DNA from: Blepharisma japonicum
Lineage: Eukaryota > Ciliophora > Heterotrichea > Heterotrichida > Blepharismidae
Length of the DNA: 64,000 bases
Assembly (NCBI GenBank): GCA_949751835.1
Contig: CATKHK010000053.1
Span: 1-64,000 of the forward strand
Direction of reading: 5' to 3'
A program made the translations under genes and the position numbers. The notes under the pieces were generated by a model, which was not told where the DNA came from, did no database searches, and worked only from the letters and a program-made list of their open reading frames with translations. Position 1 is the first letter of the stretch. Each line of letters opens with the position of its first letter. Positions 26,203-63,326 of the stretch are shown here, piece after piece.

Positions 26203-27589
26203 ATGAGTTTGATTGTACCACTAATTGCAATCCTTGCCTTCTTGTTACCAGCTGCTGAAAGCAACTGAATTAATAAATGAGAGCTGAAGAAAACTAAACT
26301 TAGCTCTAACAGCTACACGGGCATAATAGCCGGATCTTTAACCCCGAATCCATCATCTCAAGATATTTCAAGTGCTGCTACGTGCTATGCACATGTAAAG
26401 CAAGGTGAAACTTGGGGCCTTGAATTAGATTTTAACAGCAATGTGTCTGATTTAACAGATCAGATATCAGTGGTATATGGGGTGAAATTTTCATCTACTC
26501 TAAGTGACAACATTTTCCAGTTTGGAAAGAGCTCTGGGCCTCATTATGTTTTTTCCTCAACAGCAAATGGGGTTATCGATGGAAAATTTTATAAAGATGC
26601 TACTACTACTGACTCAGCCAACAACTTTCAATTTACAGTCGATTTGAGTAATTGCTATACAGATAAGGTTTTATATATTTCATTTAATTGGGTAAAGGAT
26701 GCTGCTTCAGCTGTCACGTTGAATGTTTTTATTTCAAAAAAATGAAAAATTCCCTTCAGTTCTGTTTGAGGATCGACTTCACCTTTCGAGCTTCCTTATG
26801 GCTATATGTTTTTCGGGAAGTTAGTTTATGCAGAATTTTATTATGTCTATCTTGCCAAATCGGCAGGTTATGTAAACGGATACACAGTTACCTCAGACAA
26901 AAGTGATAATGCTAACTTTGTGAGCACTAGCACATGCAATGGTGATTGTATTGATGATACGTGCGATGAGGATAAAGCTTGTATCAGCTCTAAGAAATTG
27001 TGCCAGTGTACTCAAACAAATGATTGTCCAAGTTGTTCTCAGCCCAGTCGCGATCCTCAAAAAAATTGCGATTCATGCTTGACTGGATTCTCATTTAAGA
27101 ATCATCTCTGTATTTTTTACTTTAGGCTGTTCTGATGCCCTCACCAATTGTCTTGCTTGCTCACCCTCATCAGGAACTGTTTGCGTTTTATGTCCAGCAG
27201 GCTCCTTTCTTTACGACAATGGATCAGGCACAACATCTTGTGTTTGTAATTTTTATTTAGTGTGTGCGGCTTCATGCACTGCTTGCGATGCTAGCACTTG
27301 CTATGAATGTGCGGAAATAGTTAATCAAGATTCACCTACATGCAGGGTTGATAAGCTAGGATTCAAATATCATTTCAGTGATCCTTATTTCATCATTGAC
27401 TTCGCTCATGCGAGCACAAATACTTACACCATTGAAAGCCTTGTAGCTAGCTATGATGATGGGCGAACTAAAGACACTAGCGGTTGGACGGTATATTCAA
27501 GCACAAGCAAGCAGATACAGATACTAACCACAGATTTTAGTGAAGCAGATCTTCCGATTAAAATTGACTTTATCTTTGGATATTCTTAA
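26203..27589 (+). CDS. Secreted LamG-like and cysteine-rich protein, member 1
   Basis: Exons 26203-27109, 27126-27245 and 27261-27589 with 16-nt and 15-nt introns give an intact 451-residue protein with four TGA as Trp. Signal peptide: LIVPLIAILAFLLPAAES. Residues about 70-210 form a LamG/concanavalin-like beta domain (VKFSSTLSDNIFQFG, LSNCYTDKVLYISFNW). Next come closely spaced cysteines like furin/growth-factor-receptor repeats (CDEDKACISSKKLCQC; CTACDASTCYECA). A C-terminal beta module ends FSEADLPIKIDFIFGYS with no membrane anchor. Likely secreted or cell-coat protein; ligand unknown. Closest to the member at 32617, and the pair is more distant from the members at 40-63 kb. Confidence 0.8.
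27110..27125 (+). other. 16-nt intron
   Basis: gtattttttactttag. Removal changes the frame and creates the Cys-Cys junction (HLC-CSDALTNC) shared by the whole family. The equivalent intron in members 3-6 is the 15-nt gtaaattctacttag or gtaaattttacttag. Confidence 0.85.
27246..27260 (+). other. 15-nt intron
   Basis: gtaatttttatttag, joining SCV to LCAASCTACD. The same intron stands at 33657-33671. Members 3-5 have the 16-nt gtaagtttttatttag here. Confidence 0.85.
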
Positions 27590-27984
27590 AAACTAGCTAT
27601 TAAGCATCGATTAGTAATAAAGCTAATTTATTAAAAACTAAAATACTAGAACTATATCCTTATAATTTATTGTTGTTCACTAACTCCTATAATATTTAGA
27701 TCAAAAACCCTGAAAAGCATAAAGTGAAAGAATTATTTACTCTAAGCATTACATTTCATAGCCATAATAACAAAAATCAAATTTATTATAGAAGATTCAA
27801 ATAATTACTATAATCTAATAGCTCTCTAAATTCTAAAGAGAATATAGGGATCAGCATTCTTTTGATTATTTTCAAAATGTTTATTATATTATCAAATCCC
27901 TATTAAATTAAAGAATAAAGCAACAGTTTTCATATTTAATTGATATATATTTTTCTTATCCTTAAATTAGAAATCAATGCCAAA

Positions 27985-28390
27985 ATGAGCCTTAAAAAAT
28001 TCAAACTTATAGGACTTATTTTAGATTTACTTCCAAAAATAAGAAAGAAAAATTAAGCATTAACTTGCAAAGCAATAACTTTAAAGGAAGTTAAATTAGA
28101 AGCTCTTATAAAAGAAATTGGATAGAAAAGTAACTTCAACTACATAAAGAGTATCTATCACAAATATCTGCGCCAAAATTCCATAAAGGAAAGAATTATC
28201 CATTCGAAGAAAAGCACAATATAAAGTCAAAAAATCTCAGTAATTGATTAAAAACCCAAAAATGATTCCTGAAGCAGCCGAGAAAGAAGATTTTCGCCTT
28301 AAAATTATCAAAGCTTGCAGTCATGAAAAGCTCTATTGATACAGCAATCTCAAGTGCTAAATAATTCACTCAAACATTAGGTTTGAGCCT
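27985..28390 (+). pseudogene. Decayed helical ORF in the duplicated 3' flank
   Basis: One frame from ATG 27985 keeps coding-like stretches between several stops (LIGLILDLLPKIRKKN; LKEVKLEALIKEIG; YLRQNSIKERIIHSKKST). A second decayed copy lies at about 34370-34740. The spacing faintly recalls the helix-turn-helix start of Tc1/mariner-type transposases, but no catalytic part is visible, so this is only a suggestion. Confidence 0.25.
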
Positions 28391-28960
28391 TTAAGCAGTG
28401 CCTCAGTTGAATGCCTTTTCTAGCATTATATAAAATAAATAGGCCTTGGCACTGACTTTTCAAGTCCATCGGCTAACTTAACGGAGCTTTCAGGGGTTAT
28501 AGGGTAAAATTTACATCGACTCTCACAGACAAGTTTTTTAAGTTTAATCAGTTATGATGTTTATTGTGTTTTTTCTAGCAATTAATTGGGCCTACTGAAG
28601 CTGACTCAACGAATAACTTTTCTTTTTCCCTTTTGAGTAGTTCATATGCAGATAAGTTTGTCTTCATTGTATTTATTTGGGCACAGGCTGCAGATTCTTC
28701 AGTTTTTCATATTAAATATCCTTATTTAAAGATTAGGTAAATTTTCTATGTTTCTATGGGATCCCTTCAGCTTCCTGATGGCTATATGCTTTTTAGGAAG
28801 CAATTTTATGAAGCTTTTATACTGTTTTTACTGCAAAATCTGTTTACGGGATCAGAATACGAAGACGTAATAACGACAAAAATAAGAAGTCTGAAGCCAT
28901 TAGGAATTTCTGTGAAAAAATCAATATGCATAAAACAAGCTGCTTTCTATAGTTATAATT
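28391..28960 (+). pseudogene. Decayed cysteine-rich family relic
   Basis: Translations in shifting frames match the LamG region of the members at 26203 and 32617 (GLGTDFSS; LSSSYADKFVFIVFIW; SLQLPDGYMLF; AFILFLLQ). Many stops and shifts. The counterpart in the second duplication is cut short at about 34983 by dispersed unit copy C. Confidence 0.55.
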
Positions 28961-29204
28961 GATAAAAATAGTGTCAAAGTTAATGTATAGGGAGGATCGT
29001 AATTATGATTGCAAGACCTAGAATAAGTCTCTAAAAGAGGATGACTTCTGTTTGGCTAAGTTTAAACATATAAAAATGATAGAGTTCAAATAAGCACTAC
29101 TGTTTTTAGTATCAATAATTTTTTAGCCATCTTCCATTCAAGCCTTGGTAGTTTTATTATAAGAAGAGTTCCAGGAATAGTGTCTTCCAAGATTTTAATT
29201 AATA

Positions 29205-29315
29205 AATGAGTACCGGAGTGAGCAGGTCTGGTCGATAACGACCAATGTTGAAAGTGACAGTGAAGTGCATTTAATAAAAGTAGCTCAGAGTCGGTTGAGC
29301 TACATTTATTATGGC
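29205..29315. other. Two strong hairpins, possible structured RNA
   Basis: 29229-29244 is TGGTCG-ATAA-CGACCA, a perfect six-pair stem with a four-base loop. 29273-29310 folds into fourteen pairs with one A-A mismatch around an eight-base loop (arms GTAGCTCA and TGAGCTAC). The block is richer in G+C than its surroundings. The second arm resembles a tRNA D-arm (tagctcagag) but I cannot complete a tRNA. It could be an RNA gene, a palindrome or an element end. Confidence 0.35.
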
Positions 29316-29454
29316 CTATATTTTCTGTAAAACATTTTCAGCACACCTCACAATCTGGCCAAATAAGTATCCTTCCTCAAATTTTCTGCACCCAACTAGA
29401 TTGAGATCAGCTATATGAGTTTAAAGGGTAGTTTGTTTGTCATGCCATTTTATT

Positions 29455-29814
29455 TTATACTATCACCAGTGTATACATATAATGAAAAAGTCAATAAAGC
29501 ATCAAAGCAATTCCGAAGCAGAAATTGTGGAATTTTTGGCATACGAACCATAAATATTGAGATTCCCCTTTTCTTTCGTCATCCTCTACATTTTTCAGTC
29601 CTTCTTTAATTAAGTATAAGTATGGGAGAGTACATAGCACTATTGCCAAACCTACAATGCCAACTCATCCTATCAATGGCCGTACAATCAAAAAAGATTC
29701 GATGAAACGTACAAGTGCTCATAGTTGGCAAGCCCGTGCAAAAATTCCAGTTCAGCCTCTATCAAACTTCGGACAGCCCTTTATAATACCTTGAAAAATT
29801 TCTAAAAAGATGTT
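29455..29814 (-). pseudogene. Fragment of dispersed multi-TM protein
   Basis: 119 open codons without an ATG, five TGA read as Trp, stop TAA 29455-29457. Membrane segments LIVRPLIGWVGIVGLAIVL and FCFGIALMLYWLFHYMYTL flank a short acidic linker. Homologous, more damaged pieces lie at 49400-49810 (-), 52720-53100 (-), 18600-19080 (+) and 36200-36540 (+), where the gene is the divergent partner of TMEM164-like relics. Family not recognised. Confidence 0.4.
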
Positions 29815-31600: not shown

Positions 31601-32311
31601 GTGAGGAATCTGCTGGAAATAATTACTTGGGTTGCTTCATTTCTTTAGCTCAACAAAATTATCCTAGCACTCTTTATTTCGTAAAATCATTCTGAATTTA
31701 CTACTGTACATTTCAAGGACATAGTAAAAAGACCAACTATATTGAAAAGATTCACAATGAGCCTTCTAGGAGACGCGGATCATAGTAGCACAGAGGTATA
31801 GACCATTTTTTGCCCCTAGGCAACAAATGAAAATGTGACTAATAGAAGAGGAGTAATAGGCAATAACTGTTAAGTATTATTACTGTTTAGGATTCTCTTT
31901 CCAAATAAAATTTGACTTTACTAAAAAATAATCAATTACTGAAATTAACTTTTAAACATCCAGCCTTTTCTTTCAGTGAGGAGGCAATAATCTCAAGACT
32001 TGCTGTAAAATAATTTCGTTTAAATATTTATTATGCTCCTTGAGTGCTCTCGTCTATGGATAGCAATCTCTACTTCACTTGGCTTTAATAGGATCAAAAG
32101 CTTAGATATACTTCTCTTAGCTTTAATGAGATCAAAAATCCGTAATATAAGCATATTTCTTAGCACTTCTTCATGGAATAGGCTTATCTATTGAGTTTTT
32201 AGTTCTAATGCTCATTCTTGATAGCAAACTTGGAGCTTTCTAATTTTGAAACTTTCAAAGAGAAAAAAATTTACCGTTTTTTATAAGTGCTTAAAATGGA
32301 TGATTAAATTA

Positions 32312-34983
32312 TAATAAATAAAATTGAAGTAATTACTTGAGAAAGCTTGCTTGCATTTCTAAACTTTTAGATCATTTATGAGATTAAGCTGGAAATTTCA
32401 AAAGGAGTTAATTGTTGATGACTCAAGAATTTTTGACTAAAGTCGAGAAAAGTTTAAGCTTTTTGAAGCTTATAATTTTAAAATTTTATATATTTATTGC
32501 TGGCAGAGCCTTTTGGTACTAGCTAGTCTATTAAGGTTTTTGAATTTTTAACTAAATTAGCTTCACCATATTTTTCGTCAAGCTAATATTTGAGTCGATG
32601 AAAATCCTTTATAAATATGGGTTTGATTAGACCACTAATTGCAATCCTTGCCTTCTTGCTACCAGCTGCCGAAAGCAACTACATTGATAGATGTATGCTT
32701 AAGAAAACTAAACTTAGCAACAACCAATACTCATGTGATTCGTCAATTTATTTAAAATCAAATCCATCATCTCAAGGTCTTTCAAGTGCTGCTATGTGCC
32801 ATACAATTGCAAAGCAAGGTGAAGTTTGGGGCCTTGATGCCGATTTTAGCATCCTATTAACTAGTTCAACAGAGTATTCAGTTGCATATTCGGTGAAATT
32901 TTCATCTACTCTAAGTGACAACATTTTCCAGTTTGGAAAGAGCTCTCAACCTCATTATGTTTTTTCCTCAACAGAAAATGGGGTTATAGATGGAAAGTTT
33001 TATAAAGATGCTACTACTACTGACTCAGCCAACAACTTTCAATTTAAAGTCCCTTTGAGTAATTGCTATACAGATAAGTTTATCTTCATTGGATTTAATT
33101 GGGTAAAGGATGCTGCTTCAGCTGTCACGTTAAATGTTCTTATTGTAGGAGTAGGAAAAAATGCCTACACTTCTGCTGCAGGATCGACTTCATCTTTCGA
33201 GCTTCCTAATGGTTATGTACTTTTCGGGAAGTCAGTTTATGCAGAATTTTATGTTGTCTATATTGCCAAATCGATTTATTTTACAGGCTCAGACTATTGA
33301 GGTTTAATCGCATTAGGCAATGCCGGTTCTCCTAGCTATGTGAGCAGTAGCTCTTGCAATTATGATTGTACTGATGATGTGTGCGATGAGAATAAAGATT
33401 GTATTAGTTCTAAGAAATTATGCCAGTGTACTTCGTCAGATAATTGTATAAGTTGTTCTCAGAATCGAGATTTTCATACCAGCTGCAATACATGCTCGAC
33501 TGGATTCTCATTTAAGAATCATAATTGTATTTTTTACTTTAGGCTGTTCTGATGCCCTTAATTGTCTTGATTGCTCACCCTCAGGAACTAGTTGCAATTT
33601 ATGTGCAGCAGGCAACTTTCTTTATGACAATGGATCAGGCACAGCATCTTGTGTTTGTAATTTTTATTTAGTGTGTGCGGCTTCATGCACTGCTTGCGAT
33701 GCTAGCACTTGTTATAAATGTGCGGGAATAGTTTATCAAGATTCAACTACATGCAGGGTTGATTCGCTAGGATTCAAATATCATTTCAGTGATCCTTATA
33801 TCATCATTGACTTCGCTATTGCGAGCACAAATACTTACACCATTGAAAGCCTTGTAGCTAGCTATGATGATGGGCGAACTAAAGATACTAGTAGCTGGAC
33901 GGTAGATTCAAGCACAAGCAAGCAGATGCAGATAAAAACCACAGGTTTTAGTGAAGCAGATCTTCCGATTAAAATTGACTTTATCTTTGGATATTCTTAA
34001 AAACTGCTATCAAGCATCGATTAGTAATAAAGCTAATTTATTAAAAACTAAAATACTAGAACTATATCCTTATAATATTTAGATCAAAAACCCTGAAAAG
34101 CATAAAGTGAAAGAATTATTTACTCTAAGCATTACATTTCATAGCCATAATAGCAAAAATCAAATTTATTATAGAAGATTCAAATAATTACTATAATCTA
34201 ATAGCTCATTAAATTCTAAAGAGAATATAGGGATCTGCATTCTTTTGATTATTTTCAAAATGTTTATTATATTCTCAAATCCCTATTAAATTAAAGAATA
34301 AAGCAACAGTCTTCATATTTAATTGATATATATTTTTTTTATTCTTAAATTAGAAACCAATGCCAAAATGAGCCTTTAAAAAATTCAAATTTATAGGACT
34401 TATTTTAGATTTACTTCCGAAAAATAAAGAAAAGAAAATTAAGCATTAACTTGCAGAGCAATAATTTTAAAGGAAGTTAAATTAGAAGCTCTTATAAAAG
34501 AAATTGGATAGAAAAGTAACTTCAACTACATAAAGAGTATCTATCACAAATATCTGCGCCAAAATTCCATAAAGGAAAGAATTATTCATTTGAAAAAAAG
34601 CACAATATAAAGTAAAAAAATGCCAGTAATTGATTAAAAATCCCAAAAATGATTCCTGAAGCAGCCGAGAAAGAATGTTTTCTCCTTAAAATTATCAAAG
34701 CTTGCAGTCATGAAACTCTTTATTGATGCAACAATCTCAAGTGCTAAATAGTTCACTCAAACATTAGGTTTGAGCCTTTAAGCAGCGCCTCAGTTGAATG
34801 CCTTTTCTAGCATTATATAAAATAAATATTGGGGCCTTGGCACTGACTGTTCAAGTCCAACAGTTAAATTAACAGAGCTTTCAGGGGTTATAGGGTAAAA
34901 TTTACATAGACTCTCAGAGTATTTTTTTTAAGTTTAATCAGTTATGATGTTTATTGTTTTTTTCTAACAATTAATTGGGTCTT
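32312..34983. repeat. Segmental duplication, copy 2
   Basis: Second copy of 25897-28590. The right end stops abruptly at about 34983, where dispersed unit copy C begins. Confidence 0.85.
32617..34000 (+). CDS. Secreted LamG-like and cysteine-rich protein, member 2
   Basis: Exons 32617-33526, 33543-33656 and 33672-34000 (introns 16 and 15 nt) give an intact 450-residue protein with one TGA as Trp (33298-33300). Signal peptide PLIAILAFLLPAAESNY, LamG-like domain (SVAYSVKFSSTLSDNIFQFG), Cys-rich region (CDENKDCISSKKLCQC, CNTCSTGFSFKNHNC) and the C-terminal beta module ending IDFIFGYS. It arose with member 1 by segmental duplication. Differences cluster in the N-terminal third and the linker after the LamG domain. 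Confidence 0.82.
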
Positions 34984-36540
34984 TTCTTTCTACTATAGAT
35001 AGTGTTGTTTTTCTTATATATTTGATCACTATTAATTTCACAATAGCAAATTCGAAAATGAAGTATAAGATTTTATCGCATTCTAAGGCTTTAAATGTAA
35101 TGCAAATTCAATGGCATATTCTATTAAATTTTTTGTTCAAACACAAAGTTGCTATTTTTGAAAATCACTCTGTCTTTATTTAAGATCCTAGAGGAGAGAA
35201 TAATTTTATTTGCTTTAAGTTTCAGTTTAGCTTAAGAATAAATTCAATAATCTTTATCAAAAGAAATAAAAAGGGAGATATAGCTTATGGTAGAAGCTGA
35301 AAAGAAAATAATGAAGAAAAGTAGAGAAATTATCTCTTTTCCAAAAAAACAAACACAAAGAAAGACTATTAAGGACAATGGACTGCTCATTAAAATTCTA
35401 TGTAAAATTTAGATTAACTTTTTAAAGTTTAATAAAAAATGAATTTATGTGCAAAATTTTAACAAAATATTTATAAACTGTAAATTATAAACCTTTATTA
35501 CGCTTATTTATTTTCTATCTTGAATAAGGACGGAAATATAAACATTCTAATATTCAAATACAAAAGTGGAAAAATGAAGAATATACGAATAAAAATTTAG
35601 AACTCAGCCATTACACAATAAAATTTCTTAATTTAGAAAAATCAGATCTTTAATTGGAGATTCACATAATGCAAACTCAATATTTTCCCACATCAAAATC
35701 GCTAAAGGCTCACCAATCTTTGAGAAAAATAATGAAATCCTGAATATCCCTCACATAACAATGATTTCCAGTTTAACTGATAACTTCTTGTAAATCTCCC
35801 ACAAGCAATAAAAATCAACAAGGTTATCACCCAGCCAAATAGTGCTGGATCAAAACAACATTATTCACCAGTGATTGTAAGGTTTCCAATTGCAGGCTAA
35901 AAAATCATAATTGCTCTAGCTGTTAATTACAATGCCTAAGAAAGGAGGATTATTTTGGCGGATTTTAGAGAAAATGTGGTAAATAATTGTATCATTGGGC
36001 TAAGGTGACAGGTGTCAAGGAATAATTAGAAAAATCAGTCTTCCTGTAATAGATTTTGTAATGAGCTGCCAGAGGACTATAAGTATAAGCAAAAGCTGAG
36101 GATTTTTCGATTAATAAGACGATAAGGGTTTTTAAAACTTGGTTTTCGATAATGTAAGGACGGATAAAGTATAAATAAATTCAGAGATGAATAATGAATT
36201 ATATACTGATACGCTTTTGGTGCAGTAAGATTTTACTTTTAGATTCCATTTTATCAGTCAGAGTGAGTGTTTTATTATTTTTCATATCTATTAAAAATAT
36301 TCACCATAGAGAGAATGGCAAATTATGCTTTTAAGTGAAAAACTGGATAATGATAATTCTGATAGCAATAAAGACTTGGCGGTGTTCCCAGAAAAATGCA
36401 CATTTTCTTATTAAAGCAAGTTGCAAAAAATGAGAGATAAGAAAATTCATTTGAAGTTAGTTAAAGATAAAAAAGTGATGGCTTAGCCAAAACCGCCTGA
36501 ATATTTCATTAAAGCAAGGAGAGTTGAGGACCTATAGAAA
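34984..36540. repeat. Dispersed unit copy C: TMEM164-like relic (-) plus divergent membrane-gene relic (+)
   Basis: Same arrangement as copy A. The TMEM164-like relic reads on the minus strand at about 35490-36180. The partner relic reads on the plus strand at about 36200-36540 (LDNDNSDSNKDLAVF; KIHLKLVKDKKVMA). Both are heavily broken. Its left edge truncates duplication copy 2. Confidence 0.6.
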
Positions 36541-40432: not shown

Positions 40433-41833
40433 ATGGTTTATTCAAAACCGCTAAATACTCTTGTCATCCTTGCTCTCTTATCACTTGCCAAATCATTTGC
40501 ATGATTTGGCTACTGGGATTTGTTTAAATATACAGGGGAGAGCTTGCCGACTTTTGGTTTCAAAAATGGAGATAGTTTTAGCTCTCCTTATATAGCCCCA
40601 GATACTACTGCAGACTTTGGCAGCCTTGCTGGCTGTGCCTCAACAAGCCTTAGTAGCCAAGCCTGGAGCTTAACAGCAGATACTAGCAGTTTAATCGGAG
40701 CCGAAACAGAGTTTGCATTTGGATTTTGGGTAAAATTTGAATCAACTATCAGTACCAAAGTTTTTCAATTCGGAGATAGCACTGGCCCACATTATATAGT
40801 CTCATCAACAAAAGATGGTGCTTTAAAAGTTTCCTTCTACTCAGATGCCACAACAACCTCTTCATCTAATGATGTCCCCATAACTGTTCCTTTAAGTAAT
40901 TTTTACACAGATAAGTGGATCTTTATTGTGTTTCATTTTAAGCAGGCATCAACTGTTACATTGGATGTCATATTGCCTAAAACCGCTATGATTACCAAAA
41001 CTTCAGCTGATTTTGCATTGCCTGGAGGAAAATTCTATTTTGGTATGTCAATTAAGGCAAAGTTCAGGGGGGTTACACTTACAAAGAGTGCATCAATAAA
41101 TGCGAGTTATGATACAATAACATTAAGTGATGGATCTGCTCAAAAATCTATAGCTATGCCTTGCAATAATCCTGGAGCTTACAGTGATGATGTATGCCTT
41201 GATAGTGGCGCTACATGCTTAGTAACAAGAGATTATTGCACCACTTGTAGTTCTAGTACATGCAGTGCTTGTGACGCTGACTCAGCCAGAGATCCATCTA
41301 CTTAGTGTAGTAACTGCAAGGATTCTACTGTTGAACTTAAAAACTTTCACTGTAAATTCTACTTAGGTTGTGCTAAAGACCACAATTGTGCTGATGCTCG
41401 AAAAAAAGCACTCAATGCGATGTATGTGCGACTGAATACTTCCTTTATGACGAGAGTCCCACTTCTACAACTTGTCTTTGTAAGTTTTTATTTAGCTTGT
41501 ACAAGTTCATGCACAAGTTGCTTACCTGGCCCTACTTGCTATACTTGTGCTAATACAATAACTCAAACTGGAAGCACTTGCAGAGTCGATTCTATTGGAT
41601 TCCAGATTAGCGTCGATCTTCCAAATATTGTACTAGACTTTGCTCATCCTCTCTCAACTGGGTTGACAAAAAGTTCATTTACAGCTTCTTCAACCTCAAC
41701 TCCATCAATCGCTACAACAGGATGGACTTTCACTGGCTGTGTAGCAGGGAATATACAATGCAATATTGTGACTGATAATGTTCACGAGAGTGATCTCCCA
41801 ATTACGCTTGACATCGAGTTTACTCAAGTTTAG
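40433..41833 (+). pseudogene. LamG-like and cysteine-rich protein, member 3, interrupted
   Basis: Exons 40433-41351, 41367-41479 and 41496-41833 are recognisable, with introns of 15 nt (41352-41366) and 16 nt (41480-41495). N-terminal signal (LNTLVILALLSLAKSFA, W by TGA next), LamG-like domain (FGFWVKFESTISTKVFQFG, FYTDKWIFIVFHF), Cys-rich region and C-terminal module (VLDFAHPLSTGLTKSS). Two lesions: TAG at 41303-41305, where members 4 and 5 have Trp and member 6 has Lys, and a one-base loss near 41396 in exon 2 (members 4 and 5 read GCTGGATGC). Otherwise as well conserved as the intact members, so the damage is recent. Confidence 0.75.
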
Positions 41834-42944: not shown

Positions 42945-43045
42945 AGTTAAGCTTGAGTAAACTCGATTTCAAGAGTAACTGGAAGTTCGCTTTCTTGAAG
43001 ATTATCAGTCAAAATTTTGCATTGTGACAAGCCTGCTGAGCAATC
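42945..43045 (-). pseudogene. 3'-end fragment of the cysteine-rich family
   Basis: About 100 bases matching the end of exon 3 (ending FTQA-like), with nothing of the rest of the gene. Confidence 0.45.
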
Positions 43046-44489: not shown

Positions 44490-44590
44490 TTATACTTGAG
44501 TAAGCTCAACTTCTAGTGTAATTGGGAGATTGCTTTCATGAAGATTATCAGCCACAATTATGCATTGCTTTAAGCCAGCTATGCAATAAA
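44490..44590 (-). pseudogene. 3'-end fragment of the cysteine-rich family
   Basis: End of exon 3 (DNLHESNLPITLEVELTQV-type text) with stop TAA 44490-44492 and the usual 3' flank. The rest of the gene is absent. It lies directly upstream of the GC-rich gene at 44832. Confidence 0.5.
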
Positions 44591-48302: not shown

Positions 48303-48645
48303 TTAAGCTTGAGTAAATTCAAACTCAAACGAAATTGGGAGATCACTTTTGTTAAGATTATCAGTCGTAATACTGCATTGCTTCAAGCCTGCTGTGCATC
48401 CAGTGAGTGTCCATCCAGCTGTTGGTATTGGTGCATTTGAGTTTGAAGTAGTTGTAAATGAATTTTTTGTCAACCCAGTTGAAAGAGGATTAGCAAAGTC
48501 GAATACAATGTTTAGAAGATTAGCACTGATTTTGAATCCAAGAGAATCGACTCTACAAGTCTTTCTGTTAGGATTATTATTTCAGCACATTTATAGCAAG
48601 TAGGGCCAGAACTGCATTGTACGCAGGAATCAGAACAAGCTAAGA
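48303..48645 (-). pseudogene. Cysteine-rich family fragment (exon 3 only)
   Basis: Nearly whole exon 3, ending about where the second intron would lie, with stop TAA 48303-48305 and conserved 3' flank. Text such as CVQCSSGPTCYKCAEI and TSNSNAPIPTAGWTLTGC is close to member 6. A small deletion breaks the frame near the RVDS motif. Confidence 0.6.
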
Positions 48646-48699
48646 AAATTAGTAATTCACCAAATTCACATCATTCCCCAAACCGATAAAAATTTAGTC

Positions 48700-52100: not shown

Positions 52101-52369
52101 TTATCAGCTTGAGAAATGATTTGAACTTTTTGGGTTAACTAAATATATGAGAATCAACTTGTGTATCTGCAGCACTTAAAGAATCATCAAGCAAAGCAAT
52201 GTCTTTTGCCAAGCTAATTCTCGCTTTTTAATCTTGACTTAGAGTATCTTAATTGTGACCTATAGGTGTTTCATCACCTGATCTGAGTATAATAAATACA
52301 TAATTTCGCTTAAAGGATAAAATTTGTATTAAAGCACATAAAAGACTATTTTTTCAATTTTATAGGCTC

Positions 52370-54430
52370 AACTCTCCTTGCTTTAAAGCAAAATTCAGGT
52401 ACTTTTTGGCTAAGTCATCACTTTTTTTATCTTTAATTAACTTCAAATGAATTTTCTTATCTCTCATTTTTGCAAATTGCTTTAATAAGAAAATGACATT
52501 TTTCTAAGAACACTGCCAAGCCTATATTTCTATCAGAATTATCATTATCCAGTTTTTCACTTAAAAGCATAATTTGGCATTCTCTCTATGGTGAATTTTA
52601 TCATAGTTAATGAAAAACAATAAAAGTTCATTCTGACTGATAAAATGGGAAATCTTTACTGCACCAAAAGTTTATCAGCATCTAATTCATTCCCAGTGCA
52701 TAGATATGATGAAAACCCACTATAGCACCCCAAAAAATACCAATACAGTAATTGTAACAGTTGTAATATAGGCATACATATTGTATTTCTCTCTATTTTC
52801 TCTTCTTCTTCTTTCGTTATACTCGCCAAAAAAATCTACATACTTTTTAATCCTTGCATAGAAGAGTGTATAATCACTATTTCCAAACCTAAAATATCGG
52901 CCCATCTTATCAAACACCATAAAATAAAAAATGATCATATAAAAAAGCAAGTGGTACTATATCATCATAGTGGCTGCAAGCACATGAAAAATTTCAGCTC
53001 AGCTGGAAAAATTCCTTTATAGTCTCCTAAGAAAATTCGTAAAAAAGACGTTTTGTAAATTACGGCACTATAGCTTTGATTTAGGAAACAGTATTCGAAC
53101 TTTAAAATGGCACCAGTGAGAAATGTAAAATGAAAGAAAAATCGTGTTTGCCCCAAAAAATGGTAAATCAAAAGCGATCTCATACACTGGCATCATTAAG
53201 TCTAGGTGGTGTTAGTTAAGTGATCTTATAAAGTTCATTATTCATCTCTGAATTTATTTATACTTTATCCGTCCTTACATTATCGAAAGCCAAGTTTTAA
53301 AAACCCTCATCGTCTTATTAATCGAAAAATATCAGCTTTGCTTATACTTATAATCCTCTGGCAACTCTTTACAAAATCTATTATAGGAAGACTGATTTTT
53401 CTAATTATTCCTCGACACCTGGTCACCTTAGCTCAATGATACAATTATTTGCAGCATCTTCTCTAAAATCCGAAAGGGATTCTCCCAAATAATCTCCTTT
53501 CTTAGGCATCGTAATTAATAGCTAGAGCAATTATGAATTTTTTAGCTTGCAATTGGAAACCTTACAATCCCTGGTGAATATATGCTGTTTCGATCCAGCA
53601 CTATTTTACCTCGTTGACTCTTATTGCTTGTGGGAGATTTACAAGAAGTTATCAGTTAAACTGGAAATCATTGCTTAATGTGAGGGATATTTAGGGATTT
53701 CATTACTTTTATCAAAGTTGGTGACGCCTTTAGCGATTTTGATGCAGGAAAATATTGAGTTTGCATTATGAGAATCTTCAAGTAAAGATCTTATTTTTTC
53801 TGAATTAAGAAATTTTATTATGAAATAGCTGAGTTCTATTTTTTTATTCTTTTATTCTTCATTTTCCCACTTTTGTATTTGATTATTATCCTTATTCAAG
53901 ATAGAAAATAAATAAGAGTAATAAAGGTTAATAATTTACAGGTTATTAATATTTTGTTTAAATTTTGCGCATAAATTTCATTTTTGTAATAAACTTTAAA
54001 AAGTCAATCTAAACTTTTACATAGAATTTTAATGAGCAGATCCTTTGTCCTTAATAGTCTTTATTTGTGTTTGTTTCATTGGAAAAGAGAAAATTTCTAT
54101 ACTTTTCTGCATGATTTTCTATTCAGCTTCTACCATAAGCTATATCTCCCTTTTTAATTTCTTTTGATAAAGATTATTGAGCTAAACTGAAACTTAAAGC
54201 AAATACAATTATTCTCTCCTCTAGGATCTTAAATAAAGCCTGAGCGATTTTCAAAAATAGCAACTACCTGTTTGAGAAAAAAAATTCAATAGAATATGCC
54301 ATGGTTTTTGCACTGCATTTAAAGCCTTAGAATGCGGTACATTCTTATACTTTATTTTCGAATTTGCTATTGCATTTAATTGTGCTCAAATGAATAAGAA
54401 AAACAAACTATCTATGGTAAAAAGAATCTC
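52370..54430. repeat. Dispersed unit copy D: membrane-gene relic (-) plus TMEM164-like relic (+)
   Basis: Inverted relative to copies A and C. The minus-strand partner gene (about 53190 down to 52370) reads in shifting frames: KTSFLRIFLGDYKGIF, IWSFFILWCLIRWADILGLE, then LDNDNSDRNIGLAVFLEKC and DKKSDDLAKKYLNFALKQGE. The plus-strand TMEM164-like relic (53220-53930) keeps both intron positions (gtaattaatagctag; gtgagggatatttag) but has many stops. Confidence 0.6.
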
Positions 54431-55526
54431 TAAAATCAACTTTTAGTTAGAATAAAAATTTATAAGATAGCCATAGTTAGGAATTGCTCAGTACTATAGT
54501 CTGATATTGAATTTCAAAATATCTTATATAAAATATGCTTGATGGAATTTTTATCAACTAGATTTGACTTATTTTTGATCCCTTTTCATTTTAATCCCAT
54601 TAAATATTGGAAACATTACCTTTGTATTGCTTGATCCAGAGCATAGATTGTATTAAATTAATTAAAAATTTATAAAGACTTGTTAAAATTTTTGCTTATT
54701 CCACTTCGATACTTTAAATATTTAAATTAAAAAATTGTATTTTTGGGCTTGCTTTCGATTATTTGTTTATTTAAGCTTTTAATTTGTTGGTTTGGATGAA
54801 TTTTAAAATAGATTGTTTCTAAGTCTAAAATGATTAAGAAGTTTCTTAGGACATTTTAATTTTATTCGATCTTTTTAGGTCGAATTATTTAAGCAAGTTT
54901 ATAGGTTTCAAAAAATGGCAATCAAATTTTTTTGTAATTATGAATTAGAAACCTTCAAATATTTATTTACCCATTTAAATTTATCATAGCTGTATTTCAC
55001 TTTTTTTTTTCATCAGTTTAATTTTATATCAGTTTTTAGACTCTGGTTTAATTATTAAAAGGCAGTGCCTCAGTTGAAATCTGATAATGAAATAAAATTC
55101 TTAACTAAAATATCAAGTCCTTAGGAGATTCAAGTTGTAGCACAATCTATAGTGCTATATTTTAATTAGTGGGAAGATTTGGATTAAATTTCCTTATTAG
55201 AAACCATTTTCTTTATTAGAAATTTGAATGATGGCGAGGAATAAGGCTTAAGTTATATCTATTCACTAATTATAAGACTTATTCAATATCCAAACTCTCT
55301 ATAACTGCATTAAGACAAAATATAAGTAGTTAATCTAGGAAGAGCCTGACTTTTCCAAGAACTCGGAAATACTAGCCAAAAATTAAAATTTCTAAGCAAG
55401 GCCTTGAATCAAATATTATAGGAATTGTATATTTTTTCCATTCTGGCCACCCAAATCATTTATTTGAAAAAAATCAACAGAAATTTTAGGCAGAATTTTA
55501 ATATTAAAATTTTCTTAATAAACATT

Positions 55527-55560: not shown

Positions 55561-56977
55561 ATGGTTTATTTAAAACCTCTCAATACTCTTGTCATCCTCA
55601 TCTTCTTATCATTTGCCAATGGAGTATTTACACCACTAGGCAATTGACATTGTTACAAAAATACAGCAGATAGCCGACCGAATGGCATCCCATCGACGAC
55701 TCCTAGTTCCGGTGGTCCTTATATAACCACAGTCGACAATTCAAATATCGATAGCCGGCTTGGCTGTGAGTCAATAAAACTGGATGGTAGTCAAAATTGG
55801 AGTTTAAATGCAGACGCTAGCAGTTTAATTACTGGTACAGAGTATTCATTTGGATTTTTGGTAAATTTTCAATCAACTATCAGTGACATTGTTTTTCAAT
55901 TCGGACCTGACACTGGCCCAAAATATGTTATCTCATCAACAAAAGATGGCACTTTAACAGCTTCCTTCTACTCAGATCCAGCTACAACCTCTTCATCTAA
56001 TGATGTCCTGATAACTGTTCCTTTAAGTAATTTTTATACAGACAAGTGAATCCTTATTGTATTTCATTTTAAGAAGGCTGCTTCAGGGAGTGGTGCCACA
56101 TTGGAGGTTATATTGCCTAAAACTTCCATAATTACCAAAACTTCAGCTGATTTTGCATTACCTGGAGGTAACTTCAATTTTGGTAGAAGAATTAAGGCAA
56201 ACTTCCGTGAAGTGGTACTTACGAAAACTGCGTCAATAAATATAAATCTTGATACAATAACATTAGATGATGGAACAAGCATAGAAACTGCAGTCGAGCC
56301 TTGCATGTCGCCATCAGATTGCAGTGATGACGTATGCATTCAGGGTGGCTCTATATGCGTTGCAACAATGGAGTATTGCACCACTTGTGATGCTACTAAT
56401 GGCTGCACTGCTTGTGATTCTGACTCAGCAAGAGATCCATCAGCTTGGTGTCAAAATTGCTTGGGTACTTCTGTTGAACTTAAAGACTTTCACTGTAAAT
56501 TCTACTTAGGTTGTGCTGTAGACCACAATTGTGCTGGATGCTCGAAAAAAAGCACTCAATGCGATGTATGTGCAACTGGATCCTTCCTTTATGATGAGAG
56601 TCCCACTTCTACAACTTGTCTTTGTAAGTTTTTATTTAGCTTGTACTGATTCTTGCACAAGTTGCCTACCTGGCCCTACTTGCTATACTTGTGCTAATAC
56701 AATAACTCAAACTGGAAGCACTTGCAGAGTCGATTCTGTTGGATTCGAGATCAGCGCCGATCTTCCAAATATTGTACTAGACTTTGCTCATCCTCTCTCA
56801 ACTGGGTTGACAAAAAATTCATTTACAGCTACTTCAGCCTCAACTCAATCAATCCCTACAACAGGATGGACTCTCACTGGCTGTGTAGCAGGGAGTTTAC
56901 AATGCAATATTGTGACTAATAACGTTCACGAGAGTGATCTCCCAATTACGCTTGACTTCGAGTTTACTCAAGTTTAG
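55561..56977 (+). CDS. Secreted LamG-like and cysteine-rich protein, member 4
   Basis: Exons 55561-56494, 56510-56623 and 56640-56977 with introns of 15 nt (gtaaattctacttag) and 16 nt (gtaagtttttatttag) give an intact 461-residue protein, stop TAG. Two TGA are Trp, one at 56047-56049 in FYTDKW, where members 3 and 6 have TGG. Signal peptide (TLVILIFLSFANGVF), LamG-like domain, Cys-rich region with CSDDVC, CTTCDATNGCTACDSDSARD and CAGCSKKSTQCDVCATG, then the C-terminal beta module (DLPNIVLDFAHPLSTGL). No anchor is seen, so the product is probably exported to the cell coat or medium. Confidence 0.85.
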
Positions 56978-57899: not shown

Positions 57900-58734
57900 T
57901 CTTTGTTAAAGATTAAATTTTATCAGCTTGAGAAATGATAAGTTACGGTTTTTATATTTTAGAAATTTTTAAAAAGTATTTGAATGATAACTAATGTGTG
58001 TCTAAACTATTTAGTTGCAAGAGTTACGATTGCTGATTAGTTCGCCAATTTAATGCATATGAAAATTAGCAATCAAATTTTTTTCTAGTTATCAATTAGA
58101 AACCTTCAAATATTTATTTGTCGATTTAAAAATATCATAGCTGTATTTCACTTTTTTGATTTATCAGTTTAATTTTATGTAAGTTTTTAGCCTCTGGTTT
58201 AATTATTAAAAGGTAGTGCCTCGGTTCAAAGCTGATAGTGAAACAAAATTTTTAACTAAAAGTATCAAGTCTTTATGACTTAAACTTTGAATTTATTAGT
58301 GTAAATAAAATAGTCCTCACAATATCTTTCTCTTAAATCGAATTTCATACAGAAATATTACATTTCAAAATTGTTAAATAATTATTACTTAGGATTAAAT
58401 TTCCTTATTAGAAACCATTTTCTTTATTAGAAGTCTAATAATGGTGTGGAATAAGACTTAGGCTAAAGCTATCCACTAATTATCAGACTTATTCAATATC
58501 CAAACTCCCTGGAACTGCATTAAGACAAAATATAAGTAGTTAATCTAGGAAGAATCTGGCTTTTTCAAGAACTCAGAAATACTAGCCAGTAATTCAAATT
58601 TCTAAGCAAGGCCTTGAATCAAATATTATAGGAATTGTAAATTTTTCATTCTGGCTATCCAAATCATTCATTTGAAAACAATCAAAAGAAATTTTTGGCA
58701 GAATTTTAATATTAAAATTTTCTTAACAAACAAT

Positions 58735-58742
58735 TATAAAAG
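58735..58742 (+). promoter_or_regulatory. TATA box of member 5
   Basis: TATAAAAG 26-33 bases before ATG 58768, in the same conserved block as at 55527. Confidence 0.5.
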
Positions 58743-58767
58743 TGAAATAAATGTCTTTATAAATAAA

Positions 58768-60181
58768 ATGGTTTACTTAAAACCTCTCAATACTCTTGTC
58801 GTCCTCATCCTCTTATCATTTGCCAATGGACAATTAGCACCACTAGGCGATTGACTTTGTTCCAAAAATACAGCAGATACCCTATCGATAGGCATCCCAT
58901 TGAAGTCTCCTACTCAGGGTATACCTTATATAACCACTGATGATCCTTCATTAGTCAATAGCATCGCTGGTTGTAACTCAATAAAACTGGCTGGTGGTCA
59001 AACTTGGATTTTAAATACAGACGCAAGCAGTTTAATTAGTGGCCTTACAGAGTATTCATTTGGATTTTGGGTAAATTTTCAATCAACTATCAGTGCCAAA
59101 GTTTTTCAATTCGGAGCTGACGCAGGCCCAAAATATGTTGTCTCATCAACAAAAGATGGCGCTTTAAAAATTTCCTTCTACTCAGATGCCACAACAACTG
59201 ACTCATCTAATGATATCTCCATAACTGTTCCTTTAAGTAATTTTTATACAGACAAGTGAATCTTTATTGTATTTCATTTTAATAGTGCTTCAGGAAGTGG
59301 TGCCACTTTGGATGTTATATTGCCTAAAACTTCCATAATTACCAAAACTTCAGCTACTTTTGCATTACCTGGAGGCAAATTCTATTTTGGTAAAGGAATT
59401 AAGGCAAACTTGCATGAAGTTATACTTACAAAGACTGCGACAATAAATGCAGGTCTTGATACAATAACATTAGATGATGGGATAAATCAGCAAGCTGTAG
59501 CCAAGCCTTGCAATATTCCTGGAGCTTGCAGTGATGATGTATGCGCTGATAGTGGTGCTACTTGCTTGGCAACAAAAGAGTATTGCACCACTTGCGATTC
59601 TAATGGATGCAGTGCTTGTGATGCTGACTCAGCCAGAGATCCATCAGCTTGGTGTAAAAATTGCTTGGGTACTTCTGTTGAACTTTTAGACTTTCACTGT
59701 AAATTTTACTTAGGTTGTGCTGTAGACCACCATTGTGCTGGATGCTCGAAAAAAAGCACTCAATGCGATGTATGTGCAACTGGATCCTTCCTTTATGATG
59801 AGAGTCCCACTTCTACAACTTGTCTTTGTAAGTTTTTATTTAGCTTGTACTGATTCCTGCACACTCTGCAAACCTGGCCCTACTTGTTATGCTTGTGCTG
59901 AAACAATAACTCAAACTGGAAGCACTTGCAGAGTCGATTCTATTGGATTCGAGATCAGCGCCGATCTTCCAAATATTGTACTAGACTTTGCTCATCCTCT
60001 CTCAACTGGGTTGACAAAAAGCTCATTTACAGCTACTTCAGCCTCAACTTCAGCAATCCCTACAACAGGATGGACTCTTACTGGCTGCGTAGCAGGTAAT
60101 ATACAATGCAACATTGTGACTGATAATGTTCACGAGAGTGATCTCCCACTTACGCTTAACATCGAGTTTACTCAAGCTTAG
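58768..60181 (+). CDS. Secreted LamG-like and cysteine-rich protein, member 5
   Basis: Exons 58768-59698, 59714-59827 and 59844-60181 (introns 15 and 16 nt) give an intact 460-residue protein ending at TAG. TGA codes Trp after PLGD (near 58852) and at 59257-59259 in FYTDKW. Signal peptide (NTLVVLILLSFANGQL), LamG-like domain (YSFGFWVNFQSTISAKVFQF), Cys-rich region (CTTCDSNGCSACDADSARD) and C-terminal module ending FTQA. Exons 2 and 3 are nearly identical to member 4 while the N-terminal third differs more, suggesting faster change in the exposed part or gene conversion of the 3' half. Confidence 0.85.
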
Positions 60182-61059
60182 AGAGTCTTACTAAGGTAAC
60201 TAACCTTTCTTAAAAATCAATAATAATTTCAATTCAACTATTTTTTTCTCAACATTTAGTTTTGTTTTCAACAGTTTGAGTTCAACGCTCTTGCAGCATT
60301 ATCTCAGTCAAATTAGCCATGTGAGAGACAACATAGAGAGTATAAGAAAAGAGAAAGCTATATCAACGAATTTAATTCTAAATCGAGTCAGAAATAGCTG
60401 AGTATATATAAAATTCTAAAGTTAGTTCAATTTTTGAAAAAAAAATAAAGATCATTGTTCTAGTTTTATATGGACTTAATATTTCTAAATCGAAATAATG
60501 AATCTATGGTATCAGAAAATGAAATTTAAAATAATTTCTATATCTAAACATTTTTATATTGATGCTTTCCATAGTCAGATGAAAGTGTTGAATTTACAAA
60601 AGTATTTTCTTACTATGTCGATTCAAAAATGCTTAAATCTCTTAATTATGAAGAAGATTAAGATACATATAGCTTTTAAAAACTTGAATCCTTTTCTTCA
60701 ATATTCTTCTGATAAATCCAAAAATAAGCGCCCAAGTATTAGGAATTAGGTTTTTTAGCATATCATATATATAATATAAAAAGAGCTATATTTTGAGGAT
60801 AAAAAATTAGTATTGTGATGAAATCAGAAATAAACATTCAAGTCAAATAAGAAAATAGAAACGCATTCATCCATTCGAAATATATTTTTATTTCAGCAGG
60901 GCTTTTATCATAATAACTAATTAAATCTTGAGAATTTATATAAATTTGCCTTGAAAATTCCTTATTTAATTCTTAAATTACAGCTTATAGCTTTTGTGTT
61001 TATAAATACTGTAAAAATTATAGTACAAAAATTCACTATTTTTCATTTATCTTGATCAT

Positions 61060-61350
61060 CAATCATTAGCCTATATCACAAGCCACAACACTGTGCTAAA
61101 CAAATAGCTTGTCTAACAATTATAGCAGCTTCTAGCAGCTCAAAATTCCCTATCGAGATATATCCACACTTTAAAAAACTTAATAATCCAAAGCGTGGCA
61201 TCATTGAATACTTTTCATCTTCCTGCTATATCATTGCTTTTTCACCTTTATCTTTGCTTTGTATCTCTTGCACCCTCATTTTTCTCAAATCTTATTCTTT
61301 TTCATCTTCGGTTTTAGCCATCTAGAATAAAAATTTAAAATCTTTTCTTC
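61060..61350 (-). pseudogene. Dispersed membrane-protein relic, third copy
   Basis: The most decayed relative of 48700-49180 and 51687-52100; recognised by nucleotide similarity. No usable frame. Confidence 0.35.
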
Positions 61351-61384
61351 TTTTCATTTGGCCAGAAAATAATTGCTTAGAAGA

Positions 61385-61849
61385 TTAAAAGTCTGCCCTG
61401 TGAGCAATACGATTGCAATCTTCTAAAACTCGATTTCTTTCAGCTCCAAGCTCAAATTCTGTCCCAGCATTGAGCATTTCAAAAAAGTGCCTGTTGTGCT
61501 AATTGAACCTCTTCCCAATTTACCGATAGTAAACTGCAGGCCAAGCCAAAAACAAAGGAGAGAAAACAAGTCTTTTGCAGCTGAAGTTTACAGCAAGCTG
61601 AAGGAGATTCCCTAAAAACATGCTATCAAAAAAGGACTTTAAAATTACGGCAAATCTGTATTTTCTCTTGACAATATAAGCCCAATCTCTTTCAGCATTA
61701 GTTTTATAGGTATCTAAGTTCTTGTTTAGTGCCTAGTCTTTAATAAATTTCATACGCAAATTGTCGCAAACGTGGTTAGGGTCTTTTTCAGCCTCAGGAG
61801 GTAGTTCAGTCTTCTCCTTATAGAAGTATTCTTCATCCATAACGCCCAT
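61385..61849 (-). pseudogene. Unknown 154-codon gene with three internal stops
   Basis: A single unshifted frame runs from MGVMDEEYFYKEKTELPPE to TAA 61385-61387 through one TAG and then a TAA and a TAG near the middle. The text is strongly protein-like: NAERDWAYIVKRKYRFAVIL, FFDSMFLGNLLQLAVNF, HFFEMLNAGTEFELGAERNR. It may have one or two membrane-inserted helices. Glutamine would fit all three stop positions. Not recognised. Its start lies just downstream of member 6, after the same spacer that separates the 48303 fragment from histone H3. Confidence 0.4.
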
Positions 61850-61924
61850 AATATTAAATTGTTAGTTGAGATAAGAGAGTTATTGATTTTTTTAGAAAGG
61901 TTAGTTACCTTAGTCAGACTTGAC

Positions 61925-63326
61925 TTAAGCTCGAGTAAGATCGAATTCAAACGAAATTGGGAGATCAGTTTCGAGAAGATTATTAGTTGTAATACTGCAT
62001 TGCTTCAAGCCTGCTGTGCATCCAGTTAATGTCCATCCAGCTGTAGGTATTGGTGCATTTGAGCTTGAAAAAGCTGTAAATGAATTTTTTGTCAACCCAG
62101 TCGCAAGAGGATAAGCAAAGTCCAATACAATGTTTGGAAGATTAGCACTGATTTGGAATCCAACAGAATCGACTCTACAAGCACTTTCTGTTAGAGTTAT
62201 TGTTTCAGCACAATTATAGCAAGCAGGGCCAGGACTGCATTGTATGCAGGAATCAGCACAAGCTAAATAAAAACATGCAAAGACAAGTTGTTGAAGTGGG
62301 ACTCTCTTGATTAAGGAAATATCCAATTGCACATACATCGCATTGGGTGCTTGTTGTTGAGCATCTATCACAATGGTGGTCTTTGGCGCAACCTAAGTAG
62401 AATTTACAGTGGTAATTTTTAACTTCAAAAGTACTATCAAGACAATCCTTGCACTTATTAGCTGGATTTCTGGCTGAGTTAGAATCGCAAGAAGTGCATC
62501 CATTGCTATTACAAGCGGTGCAATAGTTCAATAATGTGAAGCATGAATCATAACCATCGCATACATCATCACTGCAAACTCCAGGATTATTGCAAGGTCT
62601 AGCTTCAATATTTGTAGTAGATCCATCATCTAATGTTATTGTATCATAACTCCCATTTATTGTTGCAGTCTTTGTAAGTATAACTTTGCTGAACTTTGCC
62701 TTAATCGACATACCAAAATAGAATTTCCCTCCAGGCAATGCAAAATCAGCCGAAGTTTTGGTAATCATAGAGGCTTTAGGCAATATGATATCCAATGTAA
62801 CAGTGGTTGATATCTGCTTAAAATGAAACACAATAAAGATCCACTTATCTATGTAAAAATTACTTAAAGGAACAGTTATGGGGACGTCATTAGCTGGATC
62901 AGCTTGTGAGGAGCCTGATTGGAAGGAAACTTTTAAAGCACCATCTTTTGTTGATGAGACTATATAGTGTGGGCCAGCGCTATTTCCGAATTGAAAAACT
63001 TTGGTACTGATAGTTGATTGAAATCTTACCCAAAATCTAAATGCATACTCTGTTTCGGTTCCAATTAAACTGCTAGTGTCTGCTGTTAAACTCCAGGCTT
63101 GGCTACTAAGACCTGTTGAGAAACAGCCAACAAGATTTTCAATGTTTACAGTAGTATCTGGGGCTATATTAGGACCGTTGGAAGAAAGCTCATTTTCGAA
63201 ACCATTCGGCTAGCTAACAGCTGTATTTTTATATAAACTCCAGTAGCCTAGTGGTGTAAATAATCCATTGGCAAATGATAGGAGAACAAGAACGACAAGA
63301 GTATTTAGCGGTTTTGAATAAACCAT
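61925..63326 (-). pseudogene. LamG-like and cysteine-rich protein, member 6, one internal TAG
   Basis: Exons 63326-62408, 62392-62279 and 62262-61925 keep the frame for 456 residues apart from a TAG at 63212-63210 (about codon 39, between the signal peptide and the LamG-like domain). The first intron is the usual 15-nt gtaaattctacttag. The second is 16 nt but begins GC instead of GT (gcatgtttttatttag). Domains as in the other members: YAFRFWVRFQSTISTKVFQF, FYIDKWIFIVFHF, CTACNSNGCTSCDSNSARN, CDRCSTTSTQCDVCAIG. If translation started after the TAG the signal peptide would be lost. It lies tail to tail with member 5. Confidence 0.75.
62263..62278 (-). other. GC-AG 16-nt intron
   Basis: gcatgtttttatttag at the exact place of gtaagtttttatttag in members 3-5. 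It is either a tolerated GC donor or a lost splice site. Confidence 0.5.

What the first reader, a model, noticed from the sequence alone, without database searches (positions are those of the whole stretch)
26203..63326. Expanding family of secreted LamG plus cysteine-rich proteins with tiny introns
Six full-length members plus at least four fragments lie within 37 kb on both strands. All share signal peptide, LamG-like domain, furin-like cysteine region and a C-terminal beta module, and two introns at the same places. Four are intact. Variation is greatest in the N-terminal third and least in exons 2-3. A tandem locus of variable exported proteins with pseudogene copies recalls surface-antigen repertoires, and could serve recognition or mating; this role is inference.
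Basis: partly seen in the sequence, partly recalled or inferred. Interest (0 to 1): 0.7.

Follow-up and report, generated by a model that had tools for sequence, protein, structure and literature searches.

The report
Fast-diversifying secreted lectin-like ciliate proteins
A single-celled pond ciliate (Blepharisma) carries a growing cluster of genes for secreted, lectin-like proteins in which some short stretches change much faster than the rest, as expected for molecules that recognise something that keeps changing.

Summary
In a Blepharisma genome (TGA=Trp, 15/16-nt introns, one exact gamone 1 primer site) the window carries six full-length genes (four intact, two broken) and four fragments. 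The genes share a signal peptide, a LamG-like beta-sandwich, a CxxC-rich region and a C-terminal beta module, with two introns at the same phase-1 sites. The array runs on to contig position 81,848; relatives lie on at least 11 other contigs. Two new results stand out. (1) Codon site models reject neutrality in both subfamilies (2dlnL 76 and 180; at most 9.3 in 12 null simulations each). Selected sites cluster at residues 21-75 and 233-310; in subfamily A the second half of LamG also shows it. In four close pairs the DNA of these patches differs by 16-29%, against 2-12% in non-coding flanks. (2) The two broken full-length copies are mosaics of other members. So the family evolves by duplication, recombination, decay and diversifying selection. 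Best reading: soluble secreted recognition or adhesion proteins with variable contact patches. No GPI or membrane anchor was seen and gamone 1 is unrelated, so 'surface antigen' is unproven and 'mating' has no support. Ligand and expression are unknown.

The parts
26203..27586 (+). subfamily A member, intact, 451 aa; introns 27110-27125 (16 nt) and 27246-27260 (15 nt)
28442..28877 (+). subfamily A fragment (LamG part) with stops and frameshifts
32617..33997 (+). subfamily A member, intact, 450 aa; introns 33527-33542 and 33657-33671; lies in a segmental duplicate of the 26 kb copy (25891-28593 vs 32305-34982, 88%)
40433..41830 (+). subfamily B member, broken (TAG 41303-41305, frameshift near 41393); mosaic: 5' part like the 65 kb copy, 3' part and downstream flank like the 55 kb copy
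42950..43042 (-). remnant of exon 3
44494..44585 (-). remnant of exon 3
48306..48654 (-). exon 3 fragment with a frameshift, subfamily B
55561..56974 (+). subfamily B member, intact, 461 aa; introns 56495-56509 and 56624-56639
58768..60178 (+). subfamily B member, intact, 460 aa; introns 59699-59713 (15 nt) and 59828-59843 (16 nt)
61928..63326 (-). subfamily B member, broken (TAG 63210-63212; intron 2 begins GC, about 62263-62278); mosaic: 5' part like the 65 kb copy, 3' part like the 73 kb copy
58828..58992 (+). variable patch 1 (residues 21-75) of the 58 kb copy
59464..59697 (+). variable patch 2 (residues 233-310, first Cys-rich stretch) of the 58 kb copy
58993..59475 (+). LamG-like beta-sandwich (about residues 76-236) of the 58 kb copy
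59846..60178 (+). exon 3: last Cys pairs and C-terminal beta module (111 aa) of the 58 kb copy

Best explanation
This is a birth-and-death family of soluble, secreted recognition or adhesion proteins in Blepharisma. Shown by sequence: signal-type N terminus, CxxC-rich region, conserved C-terminal module, no membrane anchor; supported by a predicted fold: a LamG-like domain. The genes duplicate in a tandem array, exchange segments (conversion or unequal recombination) and decay often. Shown by codon models: amino-acid changes are favoured at about 12% of sites, mostly just after the signal peptide (21-75) and in the first Cys-rich stretch (233-310), with part of LamG added in subfamily A; exons 2-3 are on average constrained. 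Inferred: the patches form a contact surface, the LamG core holds it, and exons 2-3 are the constant part (folding, oligomerisation or docking). Inferred: the partner itself varies (prey or bacterial surface, predator, parasite, or another Blepharisma cell), which drives the change.
For: M2a over M1a: 2dlnL 75.8 (B, 6 intact genes) and 180.3 (A, 6 intact genes); M8 over M8a: 72.0 and 175.3. The signal survives strict gap filtering (56.8, 128.3) and own trees per segment; null simulations reach at most 9.34 (B) and 2.14 (A) in 12 each. Sites with P>0.9 under M8: 16 of 19 (B) and 25 of 32 (A) fall in residues 21-75 and 233-310. Flank check, four close pairs (26k/32k, 55k/58k, 55k/81k, 58k/81k): patch DNA differs 16-29%, 330-nt flanks 2-12%, exons 2-3 6-8%. 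Mosaics of 40k and 63k: 0 of 2000 permutations. Fold: 24 PDB hits at E<=0.001, 11 of them LG/LNS entries by title (agrin, neurexin, laminin, perlecan). One signal-type segment, no hydrophobic tail. Decayed copies here and elsewhere.
Against: No expression, localisation or ligand data. The fold model is weak overall (mean pLDDT 51.7; core blocks near 80) and most of both patches is in its low-confidence part. Simple counting does not single out patch 2: dN/dS in the first Cys-rich stretch is 1.02 (B1), 0.89 (A), 1.41 (65/73 pair). In A the segment 151-232 of LamG gives a larger signal than 233-310 (51.2 vs 21.9), and 311-460 is not free of it (11.1, p 0.004). The C-terminal module gives 0.91 (B1) and 1.37 (65/73) by counting. 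Recombination can inflate site tests; own trees per segment reduce but do not remove this. Flanks may be homogenised by conversion, and in the other five of nine pairs at least one flank differs by 25-52%, so the flank argument rests on four close pairs, three of them sharing members. A tetratricopeptide-repeat frame pair near members also shows dN/dS above 1 by counting.
Confidence: 0.6

Rival explanations
1. Surface-antigen repertoire of the immobilisation-antigen kind, with one or few members expressed at a time and switched.
For: Tandem array, Cys-rich exported proteins and diversity, as in the Tetrahymena Ser family (passages of PMC4136848). The loose Ser cysteine pattern occurs in 12 of 12 intact members. 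Members lie nearer contig ends than kinases do.
Against: No GPI-type hydrophobic tail in 12 of 12, and a GPI signal is one of the two search criteria for Ser. No expression data. The exact telomere matches that were listed (up to C89; 100 of 178) include no contig end that bears the family.
Confidence: 0.18
2. Relaxed constraint: a decaying family of dispensable genes, with variation simply not removed.
For: Many broken copies (2 of 6 full-length in the window; 9 of 15 A/B copies modelled outside C53); overall dN/dS 0.85-1.04 by counting.
Against: Relaxation gives omega up to 1, not a class at 5-9; M1a and M8a already allow neutral sites and are rejected. Residues 311-460 keep a one-ratio omega of 0.58 (B) and 0.62 (A). 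In four close pairs the patches diverge more than flanks.
Confidence: 0.08
3. Mating or allorecognition factor: variable secreted proteins that tell strains or mating partners apart, for example the unknown factor for pair formation.
For: A species barrier at pair formation is reported without a named molecule in the passages seen (PMC9866912). Diversifying selection suits self/non-self recognition.
Against: Gamone 1 is unrelated. [quoted passage not shown] No expression data.
Confidence: 0.1
4. Structural secreted material (cyst wall, extrusome matrix) with loose sequence requirements.
For: Soluble by sequence, Cys-rich, many copies.
Against: A LamG-like fold and positively selected patches are not typical of structural matrix (general knowledge, from no call).
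Confidence: 0.04

Closest known systems
Tetrahymena Ser / ciliate immobilisation antigens
   Same: Exported, Cys-rich, tandem arrays, high sequence diversity (PMC4136848, passages)
   Different: No GPI-type tail here; a LamG-like domain and a C-terminal beta module beside the Cys-rich part; no sequence comparison with Ser proteins was made
LamG / LNS domains (laminin, agrin, neurexin, perlecan) and other ConA-like lectins such as CBM66
   Same: Predicted fold of residues about 80-236; Laminin_G_3 weakly in 2 of 6
   Different: No sequence match in the PDB at E<=1; TM-score by query length only 0.22-0.33 for the 24 hits at E<=0.001
Blepharisma gamone 1
   Same: Secreted glycoprotein of the same genus
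   Different: One primer site in this genome; no similarity to the family
Rapidly evolving secreted families whose coding parts outpace their non-coding parts, such as snake venom and cone snail peptides (recalled, from no call)
   Same: Variable part more divergent than flanks; duplication and diversifying selection
   Different: A free-living ciliate, larger lectin-like proteins, no known target

Membership tests
Ciliate immobilisation antigens (Ser type) | C-terminal GPI signal (hydrophobic tail) | tested here: not met
   Highest 12-residue mean hydropathy in the last 30 residues 0.49-1.19 in 12 of 12 intact members; tails printed. No GPI predictor was run
Ciliate immobilisation antigens (Ser type) | Cys pattern CX>=6CX>=1CX>=1CX>=1CX>=1C within 120 aa | tested here: met
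   12 of 12 intact members; the pattern is loose and no control set was scanned
Ciliate immobilisation antigens (Ser type) | Tandem arrays | tested here: met
Ciliate immobilisation antigens (Ser type) | Exclusive, switchable expression | not testable with these tools
   No RNA data held
LamG / ConA-like fold | Beta-sandwich fold | tested here: met
   Foldseek: 11 of 24 hits at E<=0.001 are LG/LNS entries by title, on a model of low overall confidence with a better core
LamG / ConA-like fold | Pfam match above gathering score | tested here: not met
   Laminin_G_3 in 2 of 6 exon-1 proteins, best E 0.0099; none in 2 of 2 full proteins nor in two more
Furin-like cysteine-rich domain | Pfam furin-like / growth-factor receptor match | tested here: not met
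   No such match at E<=1 (HMMER filters drop most matches above E 0.1)
Gamone 1 | Sequence similarity to gamone 1 | tested here: not met
   Best blastp E 1.4 among 12 members
Diversifying recognition family | Site class with omega above 1 | tested here: met
Diversifying recognition family | Binding to a variable partner | not testable with these tools
   Needs biochemistry

The most novel reading that the evidence does not exclude
Blepharisma keeps a germline-encoded repertoire of secreted lectin-like recognition molecules with a constant half (exons 2-3) and variable contact patches in exon 1. The array re-assorts them by recombination, working as a single-celled counterpart of a diversified innate recognition system, for self/non-self, prey or parasite.
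Probability: 0.3. Interest if true: 0.85.

Novelty: new variant of a known kind. Interest (0 to 1): 0.6.

Why it matters
Diversified recognition families are best known from animals, plants and parasites (general knowledge). Here a free-living heterotrich ciliate shows strong, localised positive selection together with mosaic copies in one 56-kb array. It offers concrete candidate molecules for what a single cell recognises outside itself, which bears on prey, parasites and pair formation in Blepharisma.

Tried and rejected
Mating pheromone: gamone 1 was located with a published primer and is unrelated. GPI or transmembrane anchoring: not found by hydropathy. Relaxed constraint: rejected by M1a/M2a and M8a/M8. 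Mosaic tests on intact copies were weaker than on the broken ones: 58 kb 2 of 2000 permutations, 81 kb 21 of 2000.

Subtelomeric location: 21 family places on 19 contigs lie nearer contig ends than 21 of the 134 kinase matches (median relative distance 0.19 core, 0.12 distant, 0.55 kinases; Mann-Whitney p 1.3e-4). Only contigs whose length I held were used, so family places on C1, C2, C34, C41, C116, C121, C154 and C190 and 113 kinase matches were left out. The exact telomere matches listed (100 of 178, up to C89) include no family-bearing end. Assembly breaks at duplicated DNA explain the excess equally well, so no claim is made.

C-terminal module: no PDB fold match at E<=0.001; weak egg-coat and uromodulin hits (E 0.24 and above) were not used. 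The repeat near 17283-19345 showed no frame over 122 codons in the three copies translated. Control ORF pairs from the held DNA are a poor control: several are antisense to family genes; among the rest, one kelch-like pair (recalled label) gives 0.34, one pair on C42 0.35 and the TPR pair 1.2-1.6. No proper control gene family was run through the site models; the controls are null simulations and the 3' half of the same genes.

Paper searches for earlier descriptions. No title or abstract start in the listings names this family. The two Blepharisma genome papers hold no 'laminin' and PMC9942806 no 'furin' in the main text. I saw passages and abstracts with outlines; supplements could not be read.
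Full report
Source. The window is C53:1-64000 of a 45.2-Mb, 224-contig assembly. Long frames open when TGA is read as sense, introns are 15/16 nt and some contigs carry (CCCTAACA)n, including at their first bases. UGA as tryptophan, 15/16-bp introns and this telomere repeat are reported for the Blepharisma somatic genome (PMC9942806, passages). A published gamone 1 primer matches once, exactly, at C9:502221-502239, beside a 305-aa frame with four N-X-S/T sites. The paper gives 305 aa for B. undulans, japonicum and stoltei, and four sites for strain R1072 of B. japonicum and the B. undulans strains but six for ATCC 30299 and five for HT-IV (PMC10892320, passages). So the genome is Blepharisma and perhaps not B. 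stoltei ATCC 30299.

The genes. A protein-to-DNA alignment that allows tiny GT-AG introns was run on 14 places of C53 and 20 places elsewhere. In the window it gives six full-length copies: four intact (26, 32, 55 and 58 kb) and two broken (40 and 63 kb). A DNA search adds two small remnants, making four fragments. Outside the window the array holds three more intact copies (65, 73 and 81 kb) and two fragments, up to C53:81848; searches list nothing further along C53. There are two subfamilies: A (26 and 32 kb) and B (the other full-length copies). Introns 1 and 2 are both phase 1 at the same places (16+15 nt in A, 15+16 nt in B as far as intact), so exon 2 is a symmetrical Cys-rich unit. Elsewhere, A relatives lie on C11, C60, C73, C103, C119, C126, C149, C153 and C160, and B relatives on C31 and C63; more distant ones lie on C12, C14, C32, C42, C120 and others, many not modelled. 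Of the 15 copies outside C53 that I assign to A or B, five run from ATG to stop without a break (C31, C60, C119c, C153, C160a); C11 has no break in the part found but its 5' end was not found; nine are broken or fragments. Search counts on this genome are lower bounds.

Protein. The 12 intact A and B proteins have 450-461 aa. At a 19-residue hydropathy cut-off of 1.6, 11 of 12 show one segment at the N terminus (65 kb does not pass, though its N terminus looks alike by eye) and none shows a second (highest 1.56, in C31). There is no hydrophobic tail, and mature Cys number 24-27. A fold model of exon 1 of the 58 kb copy, from six window sequences, has a confident core only (mean pLDDT 51.7, pTM 0.50, core blocks near 80). 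Foldseek gives 24 PDB hits at E<=0.001, 11 of them agrin, neurexin, laminin or perlecan entries by title; others are CBM66, pentraxin, a sialidase lectin domain, clostridial toxin binding domains and a pilin. Pfam finds Laminin_G_3 weakly in 2 of 6 exon-1 proteins and nothing furin-like. The C-terminal module is predicted as beta strands (mean pLDDT 67) without a significant match.

Selection. By NG86 counting, residues 22-72 give dN/dS 1.65 (four B genes), 0.82 (65/73 kb pair) and 1.37 (six A genes); LamG 0.72, 0.98, 1.13; first Cys-rich stretch 1.02, 1.41, 0.89; Cys part of exons 2-3 0.47, 0.80, 0.57; C-terminal module 0.91, 1.37, 0.52; whole gene 0.88, 1.04, 0.85. Counting is crude, so I wrote codon site models for this code and ran them on the 12 intact genes, six per subfamily, with trees from IQ-TREE. 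M2a beats M1a by 75.8 (B: 12.3% of sites at omega 4.9) and 180.3 (A: 11.6% at 8.9). M8 beats M8a by 72.0 and 175.3. Dropping every column within three of a gap leaves 56.8 and 128.3. With own trees for each segment, B gives 23.7, 6.6, 7.1, 28.8 and 3.0 for residues 1-75, 76-150, 151-232, 233-310 and 311-460, and A gives 69.1, 20.6, 51.2, 21.9 and 11.1. So in B the signal sits in the two patches, and in A also in LamG, with a small part in the 3' half. One-ratio omega for 311-460 is 0.58 (B) and 0.62 (A). Twelve simulations per subfamily under M1a reach at most 9.34 (B) and 2.14 (A) (a larger run timed out). Under M8, 16 of 19 (B) and 25 of 32 (A) sites with P>0.9 fall in residues 21-75 and 233-310, and none in the signal peptide.

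Flank test and mosaics. Nine pairs were compared. In 26k/32k, 55k/58k, 55k/81k and 58k/81k, DNA of residues 21-75 differs by 19-29%, of 236-310 by 16-23% and of LamG by 10-18%. The 330 bases upstream differ by 6-9%, downstream by 2-12%, and exons 2-3 by 6-8%. In the other five pairs at least one flank differs by 25-52%, so they do not serve as a yardstick. That same pattern exposes mosaics: the 40 kb copy resembles 65 kb up to about gene position 772 (0.77 of 227 informative sites) and 55 kb after it (0.89 of 262); the 63 kb copy resembles 65 kb up to about 854 (0.71 of 179) and 73 kb after it (0.92 of 160); 0 of 2000 permutations reach either. The intact 58 and 81 kb copies gave weaker signals (2 and 21 of 2000).

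Reading. Shown: a multi-copy, mosaic, fast-diversifying family with signal-type N termini and a more constant 3' half. Inferred: secretion itself, and recognition of a changing partner through the variable patches. Not shown: ligand, expression, site of action. The membership tests do not allow filing it as immobilisation antigens (no GPI-type tail) or as gamone 1. The paper searches listed under Tried and rejected returned no listing that names this family; only listings, abstracts and passages were seen.

Noticed in passing
window 17283-19345, 24908-25735, 34984-36205, 52367-54525; C53:77749-79357: A dispersed repeat of about 0.8-2 kb, 67-87% alike between copies, interleaved with the array; three copies translated show no frame over 122 codons.
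   Followed up: partly
C53 49508-52655 vs 67339-70550; 52544-55123 vs 77359-79953; 58058-61380 vs 79738-83096: Segmental duplications of 2.6-3.4 kb at 90-93% identity, which suggest how the array grows.
   Followed up: partly
window 37021-37524: Short frame with a sub-threshold carbonic anhydrase match (E 3.8e-5, 23.9 bits against a cut-off of 27), possibly a gene remnant or exon.
   Followed up: no
window 10744-14700(-), 19631-21523(-), 22035-24737(-), 3522-6025(+): Ordinary neighbours by Pfam: WD40 propeller protein, IQCH-like ATP-grasp, axonemal dynein light chain-like, ubiquitin-activating enzyme E1 parts.
   Followed up: no
L032 near 844(-) and L034 near 4447(-): Tetratricopeptide-like repeat frames (label recalled from the sequence, no Pfam run) beside family members on C31 and C11, with NG86 dN/dS 1.2-1.6 between aligned repeats.
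   Followed up: no
21 family places on 19 contigs: Family places lie closer to contig ends than 21 kinase genes; telomere capping of those ends was not seen among the listed exact matches.
   Followed up: partly
L049 2548-4668(-), L051 5924-8155(-): Longer frames (707 and 744 aa) on C48 and C138 that match the Cys-rich part and lie next to the same C-terminal module; they may be larger relatives; Pfam gave nothing of note.
   Followed up: no
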